From IMG/VR virus record IMGVR_UViG_3300037257_000128, positions 1 through 31,715 of that record: 31,715 nucleotides of DNA. One strand, given 5' to 3'. This DNA is from a virus. Below, piece after piece: positions 3,310 through 27,553 of this stretch (within the stretch, counting starts at the first letter, position 1; every line of letters starts with the position of its first letter). Below the pieces are notes generated by a model that had not been told where the DNA came from, ran no database searches, and saw only the letters and a list, made by a program, of their open reading frames with translations. The position numbers were made by a program, and so were the translations under genes.

Positions 3310-4790
3310 GTCAACATCCCGACAATAGTTGCTGTGGGCAACGCTGAAGCATAGTAAGTAAAATTGCTGATATTAACCAGCCCGCCATTAAGCAGTAGGA
3401 TAGTCGTTGGAACGGCGATGCCGGTATACTCCGTTGGCGTTGCGCCACCTGCTGCCGTGTACAAATACGTGCTGCCATCCGTTACTGCATTGTTATATTG
3501 CAGCGCATACGTCCCTGCAGTCGGTAAAGTAAGGTTAAATGTACCAAAGGGGCTAGGCGTTCTGAACGCCTGCCCAGAAGCGGTAATGACAAACGTGCCT
3601 TGCTGGGTGTTGTACCAGCTTAAGCCTGCGCCCGTGAAACTGGCTACATCGGCTGCACGCGCCGTATTATTCGGTATGAAGCTAGACATAGAAGCACCCG
3701 CTTCAAACTGCCCGTTGGTATTAGTCCCTGCAAAGGTGAGCGTCAACGTGCCAGCGGTTGCGGTAACAGTTAGAGATACTCGTGTCGTTGCGCCTGTGCC
3801 GGTTAATGTGCCGGTTGCTGTTCCCGATAGCGTACAAGTGCCAGTTCCCCACATTGAAACCGTGTAAGTCTGTGCGGTTGTGGTGATGTTCTGTGTTGCG
3901 GGTGTAGCAGGTATTAGCAGTAAATTCGTCCGCGCTTCTTCGGCCAGCAGGGTGATGGTATTGATTAGCGGTGTGCCTGCGGCTTCGGTGACGACGTTAG
4001 ATGCAACCGTATTGCCATTAGTCGTTGTGAAATACTTAACGCCATCAACGCCTGCGCCGTGATATGGGTAGCTCAGAACGCCGATTGAGACGTCTGCACT
4101 TGGGTTCTGATTGGATTGGCCTGTTACGTTTTCGACTAATGGGCTCCATATTTCTATTTTGTCACCAGAAACAGCGACATCAATACCTACATAACACGAC
4201 GTACTTGCGGCTGTTGATTTTATAGAAAATCGTTTCCACGTTGAACTGAGTGCTGACGTTATATCTGCACTTGAGTTGCCCTGATAGTTGAATAAATTAA
4301 CTGCACCTGTCCCTGTATTTCTGCGTAACCAAAATGCACTAACAATAGTTGCACCGCTTGGCACGGTTAGTAACTTAAAAAATTGTCCATGTGCTCCAGT
4401 TGCGGTAAATACCCAGGCTGTCGTTGTTCCATCTGGTGCGATTGCGGTCTGTGCCGAAGTAATGGAAGACAGTGCCCATCCAGCGGCGGCTGTCAATGTA
4501 GCAGAATTAGGTACTAAATTCTCAACCCGCCGAGCCCCCGGAAAGCGCACCTCGTTAACTTTAGCTGTCTTAACAAGCCCTTCAAAGTCAACCACTGTGC
4601 CTGTCGTGCTGCGCGTAAACGTCAGCCGTGAGTCTATCTGGGGTGTGGTCGCGTAGTTATACGCGAGTGCAGTCGAATTGTACTGTACCACTTCACCTGA
4701 CCCGCCCAGGCCGCCGGGCGCGTAGACATTAAGCGCCGTGCCTTGGGTGGTGTTGGCGTAGTTGGCGACGCCGGAGTTGCCGATGGGCAT
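3306..4790 (-). CDS. Tail fibre / receptor-binding-like protein
   Basis: 494 residues, Thr/Ser/Gly/Ala-rich and beta-rich. It has the RSTTGTVVDFEGLVKTAKVNEVRFPGARR pattern and later LLAEEARTNLL, both commonly seen in phage tail or fibre proteins that carry concanavalin/jelly-roll carbohydrate-binding modules. Two jelly-roll-like segments are plausible (about 95-215 and 280-385). It starts one codon after the stop of the 108-aa virion protein, and an AGGCGG within that stop region can serve as ribosome site. It probably binds host surface sugar; the exact receptor cannot be read from sequence. Confidence 0.75.
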   Translation of the reverse strand: MPIGNSGVANYANTTQGTALNVYAPGGLGGSGEVVQYNSTALAYNYATTPQIDSRLTFTRSTTGTVVDFEGLVKTAKVNEVRFPGARRVENLVPNSATLTAAAGWALSSITSAQTAIAPDGTTTAWVFTATGAHGQFFKLLTVPSGATIVSAFWLRRNTGTGAVNLFNYQGNSSADITSALSSTWKRFSIKSTAASTSCYVGIDVAVSGDKIEIWSPLVENVTGQSNQNPSADVSIGVLSYPYHGAGVDGVKYFTTTNGNTVASNVVTEAAGTPLINTITLLAEEARTNLLLIPATPATQNITTTAQTYTVSMWGTGTCTLSGTATGTLTGTGATTRVSLTVTATAGTLTLTFAGTNTNGQFEAGASMSSFIPNNTARAADVASFTGAGLSWYNTQQGTFVITASGQAFRTPSPFGTFNLTLPTAGTYALQYNNAVTDGSTYLYTAAGGATPTEYTGIAVPTTILLLNGGLVNISNFTYYASALPTATIVGMLT

Positions 4791-6178: not shown

Positions 6179-6207
6179 TTTTACCCGTCGAATGGGTCTG
6201 CTTGAAT

Positions 6208-6248
6208 CTTCCCGAGCTGACCTGCGCGAGCAGGTTGGCGAGGGATGC
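6208..6248. repeat. 41-bp palindromic element, intergenic copy
   Basis: The sequence starts CTTCCCGAGCTGACCTGC and ends GAGGGATGC. It is 39/41 identical to 24684-24724, which lies inside a protein-coding gene. An ACCTGC-GCGA-GCAGGT hairpin forms its centre, with TCCC/GGGA pairing outside. Here it occupies part of a 174-base gap without any gene. Confidence 0.75.
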
Positions 6249-6352
6249 TCTACATAGCAGGGCACCCGACACTTTAACTGTAAAGCCCCTTGTATAAGGC
6301 ACGGTCTATGTCCTTCATCATAGGCCTTGTCTTGCAATCCTCAGGAGTCGCT

Positions 6353-13660: not shown

Positions 13661-14047
13661 TTAACGGCGTCTAATGCCGCGGGGGTCTTCGGCTGTCCCG
13701 ATTACGGAATCATCCGTAATAAGGGCAAACTCTTTGCCGTGTATATTAAGCCGCATCCCGGTGTAGCTGCGGCACAAGATGAAATCACCTTTCTGGCACC
13801 ACGGTCCTGATGGGAACTTAATAGGGTCATTATAGCAGTCAGGACCTAAGTCGACGACGAACAGCACCATGGTGAGTATACTTTCGTTGGCAACGGTAAT
13901 GTCCGGCTTAATAAGCTCCGAGTTGTCGAACTTCTCGACGATTTCAGGCACGGCGCACAGGATGTGATAGCCGGTGGGTTTGGGCAGTTGTGATGCTAGT
14001 TTGGCGTGCTCGCTAGTGCTCGTACGCGTTTCTGATAAATCGGTCAC
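13661..14047 (-). CDS. GroES-like (Cpn10-fold) phage protein
   Basis: 128 residues. The order of elements follows co-chaperonin 10: KPTGYHILCAVPE near the start, LIKPDITVANESILTMVLFVVDLGPDCY, the FPSGPWCQKGDFILCRSYTG segment (mobile barrel strands), GMRLNIHGKEFALITDDSVIGTAEDP at the end. Phages often carry such a gene beside the portal and head genes, where it may help fold capsid protein with host GroEL. The assignment is by fold pattern; a head-specific role without GroEL is also possible. It is ATGA-coupled to the 66-aa gene. Confidence 0.68.
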   Translation of the reverse strand: MTDLSETRTSTSEHAKLASQLPKPTGYHILCAVPEIVEKFDNSELIKPDITVANESILTMVLFVVDLGPDCYNDPIKFPSGPWCQKGDFILCRSYTGMRLNIHGKEFALITDDSVIGTAEDPRGIRRR

Positions 14048-14244
14048 TCGTCGTCATCCTCCCCTCGTGCGAGGGTGTTTAGCAGTTGTAAAAGTTGTTT
14101 AAAAGCGTCGATTTTGCCGACAATATGCCGGTACTCTGCCCAATCTGTCGGGGTGCCTTTACTCAAGGTGTCAGTATAGACGGTTATACGTTCTTTGACT
14201 TGAATCTCGAGTTTGGTCAGGATGCGCAGGGTCTCGTTGTCCAT
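14044..14244 (-). CDS. Conserved small phage protein next to portal, 66 aa
   Basis: GGAG lies 8 bases before the ATG. The product is two helices (NETLRILTKLEIQVKERITV; WAEYRHIVGKIDAFKQLLQL) and an acidic tail GEDDDE. I recognise this as a common phage protein placed directly after the portal gene. Function not established. It follows the portal stop by 15 bases and overlaps the GroES-like start by 4. Confidence 0.78.
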   Translation of the reverse strand: MDNETLRILTKLEIQVKERITVYTDTLSKGTPTDWAEYRHIVGKIDAFKQLLQLLNTLARGEDDDE

Positions 14245-23009: not shown

Positions 23010-23122
23010 TTCCCCAAACCCGCGCCCCACAAGAACTGAGACGACCGTCTCACTTTCCTTATCACTCGATAGAAGGCCCGTTTAAAAAACACCCGTTTTT
23101 GAAGAAAGTGTACACAATTGTC

Positions 23123-23206: not shown

Positions 23207-23646
23207 CACGCACCGAAGAAAAATACTACTATGACCACCGGCAGACCAGCCCCGTATCCAGCCCTACGGGCGAGTACCCGTATATCATCCCAACCCCAAG
23301 CCACTTAGAGCAAAAACAAGGTAAGAACTATTGCCGCTACTGTCGGTCATCCTACAGCCAGCGAGCTTTGATAGCTGAACACAGCTATTGTTGGAAATGT
23401 AAGCGCGCGCTTGCCTTCATGATTTATGGCGACTATTGCAACATACACCACGGTGCTTTGAGGGCGTATTTGTACCTATCACCCAAACAGTGGCAGCGCG
23501 ATTACGAAGCGTACGCACACAGGCTAACCCACCCCACGCCGGAGGACGTCGCCAAAGAAAAAGCGTGGGAAGAAAGGGTAGCGCGCCTGGATACAATCCG
23601 TGCAATCGGCGCACAAATCGCACGTGGCGAGGTGATTTATGACTAA
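23203..23646 (+). CDS. Putative zinc-binding early protein, 147 aa
   Basis: The N-terminus is polar (TRTEEKYYYDHRQTSPVSSP). Residues about 43-80 contain YCRYC and YCWKC pairs and a following CNIHH, the arrangement of a small zinc-binding domain. A Tyr/His/Glu-rich helical region follows. Its ribosome site is not a canonical AGGAG; the ATG lies in a repeat copy. It overlaps the next gene by 8 bases, so the two are cotranslated. No family recognised; DNA or RNA binding would suit the zinc motif. Confidence 0.68.
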   Translation: MTRTEEKYYYDHRQTSPVSSPTGEYPYIIPTPSHLEQKQGKNYCRYCRSSYSQRALIAEHSYCWKCKRALAFMIYGDYCNIHHGALRAYLYLSPKQWQRDYEAYAHRLTHPTPEDVAKEKAWEERVARLDTIRAIGAQIARGEVIYD

Positions 23647-25246
23647 GAAAAAGTTCTCCCCTGTGGGCAAGAATAGCCCACTAACCCCCGAGCAAATCAC
23701 CGCCTATAACACCTCTCGCACCCGTGATTACCGCGAGCGCCAACGCATTAAACTAGGCACCAAATGCCGTCCTCGCGCTAACTTAACCCGACGAGAGCAA
23801 CTCGACCGTCTCTACAAGGCCATCAATCGCCCCGCCATGTCTTACACCGTGCCTCCAGGTGAGCATTATTACCCGCATCCTACAGGCGATACGCATAGCG
23901 CCGAATACACACGCCTCTACAACCTCGCGCGCCATAACCCACAGCTCACCAAAGAGAAAGCCGAGTATCGCCCGCGTACCACGCCTTACGTGCGCAAATC
24001 ACGCCGTTGCAATGGCCGCTTAGGCCGCCCCGTCAAAGAAACTCGATGGTCTGGTCTTGCCCCGACTATCCGCCCGTCCATCCTGCGCAAGAACAAGCTT
24101 CTCAGCAAGAGTGTGCATCGCCCCAACGGGGATGCACCGCGCCCTGCCATCCCGCGCGGCACGCTCACCCAGACCATGCTCCACGAAATCATGGACTATG
24201 TCCCCCATCTCGGCGAGTTCTGGTGGATATCAGGCCAGCGCACCGGCAACGAAGCCGGTTACGACCGTCATCTCACCCACACACGCGAGCATAAAGGCGC
24301 CAAATATCCCGCTCACGCCCCGAAAAGATTTGCCGACCCCTACGCAGGCCTCCGCCCACAACGTGCCACCAGCCCACACCCACCTCGCTCATACCCCGGT
24401 GGACACATCATCACTGGCCGCACCCGCGAGCTACACCCCGTCGATAAAAACAATAACCCGATATGCAAGCCCGCCATCAAGCTCCCGATTCATACTACAA
24501 CCCGCGACGCCAATGGCTTGGAGCACATCACCCATGATTTCCACCTCGTCCGCCCGTATAACCCGATGCGCGTCATCACCGTCGGCGGCGTCACCTACCC
24601 CGCTTGGCAACTGGCTATTCTCTGGATGGGTGCAGGATGCAAATGGCTGTACGCCTACGGAGCCGTGGCCCCAACACCTGTTCCTTCCCGAGCTGACCTG
24701 CGCGAGCAGGTCGGTGAGGGATGCAAGGGTAACGACGAGCCTGATACCAATGTAGACCTCACCTTTACAATGCTAGATGGGCGCCCTGCACCGCCCGTGT
24801 TCCGTGATGGCAACACACTCAACCTAACCTGGGACAATATCCGTCCTGATTTACCTCCAATCATGCCAACACAAGAAATGCTAATCGCAGCACAGCGCAA
24901 ATATGACAAGAAATATGCCAAACTCAAACAACAAGAGCGAACGTTCAAGGCATTATCCGCTGAAAATAAGCGTAAAGCGCTATCTGACAAGATGCGCAAA
25001 GAGCGAATTGCCCGAGAAAAACGCCAGCTCCGTGAATCCACAAAATACAATCAGGACAAATGCATCACGAAAACGACCTTTAACAAAGTGCAAAACAAAT
25101 GGGTAGTGGCTATTCCGTACCAAGAAAAGCAAGTGTTCTTTTCTGAGGCTGACGCCATAGCACATCATACACAAGTAATAGAGGAGCTAACACGAAAGGG
25201 TAAAATCAACAACACCCACATTAAGTCACAAAATAATACAGATTAG
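23639..25246 (+). CDS. Unrecognised 535-aa basic protein carrying palindromic inserts
   Basis: Very rich in Arg, Pro, His and Tyr, with noticeably higher G+C than its neighbours. Residues about 1-150 are basic and low in hydrophobics. A middle part (IMDYVPHLGEFWWISGQRTGNEAGY; VITVGGVTYPAWQLAILWMG) resembles the HNH-associated or phage DNA-binding modules that read host-like phrases, but no nuclease core is visible. Residues about 490-520 (NKVQNKWVVAIPYQEKQVFF) resemble an AP2-type DNA-binding strand set. Two palindromes lie in frame: a mini-hairpin at residues about 159-166 and a 41-bp element at about 349-362. Overlaps the previous gene by 8 bases. DNA binding is plausible; no function assigned. 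Confidence 0.7.
   Translation: MTKKKFSPVGKNSPLTPEQITAYNTSRTRDYRERQRIKLGTKCRPRANLTRREQLDRLYKAINRPAMSYTVPPGEHYYPHPTGDTHSAEYTRLYNLARHNPQLTKEKAEYRPRTTPYVRKSRRCNGRLGRPVKETRWSGLAPTIRPSILRKNKLLSKSVHRPNGDAPRPAIPRGTLTQTMLHEIMDYVPHLGEFWWISGQRTGNEAGYDRHLTHTREHKGAKYPAHAPKRFADPYAGLRPQRATSPHPPRSYPGGHIITGRTRELHPVDKNNNPICKPAIKLPIHTTTRDANGLEHITHDFHLVRPYNPMRVITVGGVTYPAWQLAILWMGAGCKWLYAYGAVAPTPVPSRADLREQVGEGCKGNDEPDTNVDLTFTMLDGRPAPPVFRDGNTLNLTWDNIRPDLPPIMPTQEMLIAAQRKYDKKYAKLKQQERTFKALSAENKRKALSDKMRKERIAREKRQLRESTKYNQDKCITKTTFNKVQNKWVVAIPYQEKQVFFSEADAIAHHTQVIEELTRKGKINNTHIKSQNNTD
24114..24136. repeat. Mini-hairpin inside the 535-aa gene
   Basis: TGCAT-CG-CCCC-AAC-GGGG-ATGCA: stem with a CG bulge on the 5' side, the same layout as the intergenic members. 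It encodes about HRPNGDAP in frame. Confidence 0.6.
24684..24724. repeat. 41-bp palindromic element, in-frame coding copy
   Basis: 39/41 identical to the intergenic copy at 6208-6248. GACCTGC-GCGA-GCAGGTC forms a 7-bp stem with a GNRA loop, and TCCC/GGGA can pair outside. Here it encodes PSRADLREQVGEGC in the 535-aa protein. The AACACCTGTTCC motif directly precedes it. Confidence 0.75.
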
Positions 25247-27463: not shown

Positions 27464-27492
27464 TTGACAAACTACTTGTAGTCCTGTAGAAT
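27464..27492 (+). promoter_or_regulatory. Promoter for the methyltransferase operon
   Basis: TTGACA (27464-27469), 17 bases, TAGAAT (27487-27492). Perfect -35 and a 5/6 -10. Followed by three consecutive hairpins before the start codon at 27597. Confidence 0.85.
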
Positions 27493-27505: not shown

Positions 27506-27553
27506 TGGCATCCCTTCCCGAAGGGATGCCAGACACTTTGCCGACTTCGGCAA
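27506..27553 (+). repeat. Two strong hairpins in the methyltransferase leader
   Basis: TGGCATCCCTTC-CC-GAAGGGATGCCA (27506-27531) is a perfect 12-bp inverted repeat; TTGCCGA-CT-TCGGCAA (27538-27553) is a perfect 7-bp one. Both lie in the transcribed leader. No T-run follows, so they are not terminators in the usual sense. Confidence 0.8.

What the first reader, a model, noticed from the sequence alone, without database searches (positions are those of the whole stretch)
24684..24724. A 41-bp palindromic element inserted in frame in a protein, with a second copy between genes
6208-6248 and 24684-24724 share 39 of 41 bases although one is non-coding and the other encodes PSRADLREQVGEGC. One difference changes a C/T opposite the stem (GACCTGC/GCAGGTC versus GACCTGC/GCAGGTT), preserving pairing as G-U. 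In-frame palindromic inserts are known from Rickettsia palindromic elements; I do not know of this one in phages.
Basis: partly seen in the sequence, partly recalled or inferred. Interest (0 to 1): 0.7.

Follow-up and report, generated by a model that had tools for sequence, protein, structure and literature searches.

The report
Mobile palindrome inside phage proteins
A 41-letter self-complementary DNA element has inserted itself, without breaking the reading frame, into two different protein genes of two related uncultured phages and also between genes; such protein-invading palindromes are known from Rickettsia and some other bacteria, and I found no earlier report from a phage.

Summary
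Window 6208-6248 and 24684-24724 match at 39/41 bases. Both differences swap G-C for G-U in one 14-bp hairpin (4-bp outer stem, GA/GA internal loop, 10-bp inner stem, GNNA loop). Scans with the conserved ends and a covariance model found two further copies in a relative, L118. One lies at the same site of the orthologous 547-aa protein: identical ends, four two-sided compensated pairs in the inner stem, but the encoded peptide is not conserved. The other (40 nt, inner stem decayed to 7/10) lies in frame near the N-terminus of a small post-portal protein. The window phage has the empty site there, and the roughly 50 aligned relatives of that protein lack the segment. Eleven more distant homologues of the 535-aa protein also lack it: 39-43 residues between two conserved motifs, against 55 in the window (41 without the 14-residue segment). 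I read this as a mobile REP/RPE-like palindrome spreading in a podovirus clade and tolerated in protein linkers. It is not a proven member of any named family: no GTAG or CGTC tag, and no Y1 transposase in the phage records. The host, the mobility enzyme and any function are unknown.

The parts
24684..24724 (+). 41-bp palindromic element, coding copy: adds 14 codons (24683-24724, PSRADLREQVGEGC) to the 535-aa protein
6208..6248 (+). 41-bp palindromic element, intergenic copy, about 30 nt after the stop codon of the 121-aa gene
24686..24689 (+). outer stem, 5' arm UCCC (pairs with GGGA 24718-24721); followed by GA of the GA/GA internal loop
24692..24701 (+). inner stem, 5' arm (10 nt); four-base loop GCGA at 24702-24705
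24706..24715 (+). inner stem, 3' arm; 10/10 pairs, compensated in L118
6216..6225 (+). inner stem 5' arm of the intergenic copy; loop 6226-6229, 3' arm 6230-6239, outer stem 6210-6213 with 6242-6245
23639..25246 (+). 535-aa gene that carries the insert in a hypervariable linker between MGAG (330-333) and RDG (389-391); no PHROG or Pfam match
24673..24684 (+). AACACCTGTTCC, a copy of the phage's most over-represented motif, directly 5' of the coding copy; AATACCTGTTCC directly 5' of the L118 copy
14044..14244 (-). 66-aa post-portal gene: empty site of the element that L118 and L127 carry in frame after codon 5

Best explanation
This is a small, non-autonomous mobile palindrome of the REP/RPE kind. 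Shown: (1) at least four copies in two related phages at three loci, with invariant ends CTTCCCGAG...GAGGGATGC and a variable, self-complementary middle; (2) two of the loci are in-frame insertions in different proteins, absent from the other homologues; (3) one locus is empty in the window phage; (4) the two copies of the window phage are 95% identical, so one derives recently from the other or both from one source. Inferred: copies move as single-stranded hairpins recognised by their ends and outer stem through an enzyme supplied in trans, probably by the host. Insertions survive where they keep the frame and fall in a linker or near a terminus, and they are simply translated. The inner stem stays paired because the hairpin is what is recognised, or because template switching at the palindrome corrects one arm from the other.
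For: Repeat and hairpin. L118 orthologue with a different, compensated inner stem. Fourth copy. Empty site and homologues of the small protein without it. Eleven 535-aa homologues without it, with the length restored on removal. The 5' half of the fourth copy is read in another frame than at 24684, so a conserved peptide is not what is kept. No match to the model in the other whole related phage records. The insert lies in a region of very low predicted order (residues 331-388, pLDDT about 25-39, poor model).
Against: No transposase of the IS200/REP kind (PF01797) and no reverse transcriptase (PF00078) in the phage records. No copies seen in the host, whose identity is unknown. Only four distinct copies. 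The copy in the 535/547-aa gene sits at the same site in two phages that differ by about 24% in surrounding DNA, with unchanged ends, which looks more like maintenance than neutral decay. Target-site duplications cannot be read. The window's empty site differs from L118 by 11 codons rather than 14.
Confidence: 0.65

Rival explanations
1. A functional cis-acting hairpin, such as an RNA-protein binding, processing or antitermination site, kept by selection in this phage clade and copied to a few places. Its presence inside genes is incidental.
For: Four two-sided compensated pairs at one site, G-U pairs that favour the sense strand, all copies in sense orientation, and invariant ends with a GA/GA internal loop. 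The ACCTGTTCC motif, 13 copies against 0.32 expected, directly precedes the copy in the same gene of both phages.
Against: The fourth copy has only 7/10 inner pairs. Positions are unrelated: mid-gene, N-terminus, between genes. The motif is missing at 6208 and in the fourth copy. Translating ribosomes would disrupt an RNA structure inside a gene. Related phages lack it.
Confidence: 0.22
2. A programmed ribosome bypass element (like T4 gene 60 or mitochondrial byp): the hairpin is skipped in translation, so the protein lacks the 14 residues.
For: A short hairpin insert in a coding sequence; removing it restores the family length.
Against: The insert is open and in frame in every coding copy, so bypass is not needed; no matched take-off and landing codons or stop were seen on inspection; one copy is intergenic.
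Confidence: 0.04
3. Ordinary protein segment; the repeat and pairing are coincidental or protein-driven.
For: The ORF reads through it in two phages.
Against: Expected chance pairs about 7e-12. Homologues lack it. The peptide is not conserved where the pairing is. The other copies are non-coding or read in another frame.
Confidence: 0.02

Closest known systems
Rickettsia palindromic elements (RPE; Ogata et al. 2000, as reviewed in PMC2229807 and PMC10969869)
   Same: Palindromic repeat, both between genes and fused in frame inside unrelated protein genes; empty versus filled sites in relatives.
   Different: RPEs are described as about 105-150 bp in Rickettsia chromosomes, many with a CGTC end (PMC3733652); this one is 41 bp, in phages, without CGTC. 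No RPE sequences were at hand for a direct comparison.
REP elements, GTAG and CGTC super-families (PMC3733652, PMC8266576)
   Same: 20-40 bp hairpins, sub-families with alternative complementary stem bases, G-T pairs, interrupted stems, occasional intragenic copies in linkers.
   Different: No GTAG or CGTC tag conserved at either end; long conserved ends (9+9 nt) that include the outer stem; no tyrosine transposase gene in the phage; few copies.
MITEs with in-frame fusions (ERIC, Correia, QMITE1; PMC2229807, PMC10969869)
   Same: Non-autonomous, structured, found in intergenic regions and in frame in genes.
   Different: MITEs are about 70-300 bp with terminal inverted repeats and often target-site duplications; none could be shown here.

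Membership tests
Rickettsia palindromic elements | palindrome found in frame in unrelated protein genes and between genes | tested here: met
   two proteins plus one intergenic site
Rickettsia palindromic elements | length about 105-150 bp (PMC2229807, PMC10969869) | tested here: not met
   40-41 bp in all four copies
Rickettsia palindromic elements | sequence homology to an RPE family in a Rickettsia-related host | not testable with these tools
   host unknown; RPE sequences not in the libraries; no Rfam match
GTAG/CGTC REP super-families | terminal unpaired GTAG or CGTC tag | tested here: not met
   flanks of four copies; a CTAC (GTAG reversed) occurs beside one copy only
GTAG/CGTC REP super-families | short hairpin with sub-families of alternative complementary stems | tested here: met
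GTAG REP with RAYT | Y1 transposase (PF01797) in the same genome | tested here: not met
   phage records only; host not testable
MITE | target-site duplication | tested here: inconclusive
   the empty site in the window is too diverged from L118
Programmed bypass element | gap that must be skipped (stop or frame change) with matched take-off and landing codons | tested here: not met
   element open and in frame in every coding copy; codon match judged by inspection
Intrinsic terminator | G+C-rich hairpin followed by a T run | tested here: not met
   neither copy listed
Known Rfam RNA family | match at gathering score | tested here: not met
   whole window

The most novel reading that the evidence does not exclude
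A phage-specific family of mobile hairpins whose structure is actively selected: short palindromes with fixed ends and freely changing but re-paired stems, carried by phages themselves, inserted in frame into phage proteins and used as sites for a phage or host factor.
Probability: 0.2. Interest if true: 0.75.

Novelty: new variant of a known kind. Interest (0 to 1): 0.55.

Why it matters
In-frame palindromic inserts have been a puzzle since Rickettsia: how they move is unknown, and they were described from bacterial chromosomes and an archaeon. A short version in fast-evolving phages, with filled and empty sites in close relatives, would give a tractable system to catch insertion events, test whether the host supplies the enzyme, and ask whether such inserts create new protein sequence. 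A limited search of open-access papers found no report of such elements in phages.

Tried and rejected
Host copies: the single genome-contig scan used the exact 22-mer and returned one actinobacterial coding match, judged chance; a looser pattern would have been wiser. Phage and plasmid collections gave only partial chance-level matches to the 41-mer. A hairpin look-alike in unrelated phages (L242/L262) scored 23.7 bits and reads as ordinary coding sequence (LPEGWAERP); 296 Actinomycetota genomes used as background reach 31.5 bits by chance, so it is not counted. The fourth copy scores only 31.7 bits, but in a 14-kb record, with 18/18 end bases and an empty site in the window, so it is counted. 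Concatenated flank proteins of the 6208 site found only the same phage, so that site has no empty-site comparison. Expanding relatives through a tail or portal protein was not done; the small-subunit terminase was used instead. AlphaFold on the 535-aa protein gave a poor model (pLDDT 40). Searching IMG sample numbers in papers gave nothing about habitat or host.

Full report
Observation. The two copies are where the finding puts them and match at 39 of 41 bases. The expected number of such pairs by chance is about 7e-12. Both fold identically on the + strand as RNA and as DNA..((((..((((((((((....))))))))))..)))).... The two differences are at columns 29 and 32, and each changes G-C to G-U in the inner stem, so pairing is kept on the + strand; the - strand fold is weaker. 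The window is an IMG/VR virus record. Two longer contigs of the same phage (46.5 and 41.4 kb, overlapping by 16.2 kb) give about 71.7 kb, with only these two copies in it.

Relatives. A scan of viral contigs for the two ends TTCCCGAG...GAGGGATG gave 62 stretches, nearly all without pairing. Among them L118, a 14.4-kb contig of a related phage, has TTCCCGAGTTGGACAGCGACAGCTGTCCGACGAGGGATG, which folds identically. It lies in the 547-aa orthologue (66% identical) of the 535-aa protein at the same place. Across an otherwise unalignable linker the two phages share 17 bases before the inner stem and GAGGGATGC after it. Between the two, four inner-stem pairs have changed on both sides and none is broken. 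With the same number of random changes, full pairing would be kept in about 0.03% of cases. The encoded peptides agree only at the ends (PSR, EGC) and one inner residue.

Insertion. Eleven more distant homologues, found through the small terminase subunit and a terminase relative, lack the segment. They have 39-43 residues between MGAG and RDG. The window has 55, or 41 without the 14 residues. L118 has 75, or 61 without them, so its linker is longer for other reasons too.

Second protein. A covariance model of the three copies found a fourth in L118 at 3475-3514 (-), 40 nt, with all 18 end bases identical but only 7 of 10 inner pairs. L127, 99.3% identical to L118 over the shared 6.1 kb, carries the same one. 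It is in frame after codon 5 of a small gene directly downstream of the portal gene (79 aa; MDHET-FPSKYAQQTREGC-ALTKLE). The window phage has MDNETLRILTKLE there, an empty site (14044-14244, - strand). All other aligned homologues of this protein in related phages (about 50 sequences) lack the segment. The 5' half is read in a different frame from that at 24684, because the copy is one base shorter. Whole-record searches of the other related phages found no copy.

Interpretation. Repeated, structured, at unrelated positions, in frame in two proteins, with filled and empty sites: this is the behaviour of a mobile palindrome of the REP/RPE kind, and the literature describes this behaviour for bacterial chromosomes (PMC2229807, PMC3733652, PMC10969869). 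It fails defining features of the named families: no GTAG or CGTC tag, no Y1 transposase in the phage records, and a length well below Rickettsia elements. Mobility itself is inferred from distribution. The strongest counter-evidence is that one copy has been kept at one site, with intact ends and re-paired stem, while its surroundings diverged; selection for a functional hairpin or repeated template-switch correction could each produce this. Bypass by the ribosome is not needed, because the frame is open.

Limits. Four distinct copies are few. The background test in 296 actinobacterial genomes shows that isolated model scores near 30 bits occur by chance, so only copies with identical ends in this phage clade were counted.

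Noticed in passing
window 22487, 22625, 23174, 24674, 30033 and others: ACCTGTTCC (consensus AACACCTGTTCCC) occurs 13 times in about 71.7 kb against 0.32 expected, on both strands, in genes and between them; three copies upstream of early genes share an AAGGTGACGACGAGG-like tail. It could be a dispersed operator (stoperator-like), and one copy abuts the element in both phages.
   Followed up: partly
window 23015-23029: Two longer contigs of this phage end at 23014 and 23030 in the window, leaving a 15-nt gap (caaacccgcgcccca) that the window bridges; possibly a cohesive end.
   Followed up: no
L118 8456-8494: A 39-nt in-frame insert (DPSPLSGEVGASG) in the small terminase subunit, absent from the window and L127, G+C-rich and partly self-complementary by eye (fold not better than shuffles); perhaps a second palindrome family.
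   Followed up: partly
L127 114-2639: The large terminase ORF is 841 aa and carries an intein-like insert with an HNH-like segment, absent from the window's 497-aa terminase (by reading the sequence).
   Followed up: no
window 27506-27531: Hairpin TGGCATCCCTTCCCGAAGGGATGCCA just after a strong promoter match (27464-27492); it contains the element's two ends joined (CTTCCCGA+AGGGATGC), model score 20.5 bits.
   Followed up: partly
window 6192-6257: The intergenic copy lies in a 21-codon ATG ORF (MGLLESSRADLREQVGEGCST) in the same frame as in the 535-aa gene; no ribosome-binding site is evident.
   Followed up: no
L094 6721-7085 and 11238-11602: A 365-bp repeat, about 90% identical, inside two 210-212-aa paralogues of the same phage.
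   Followed up: no
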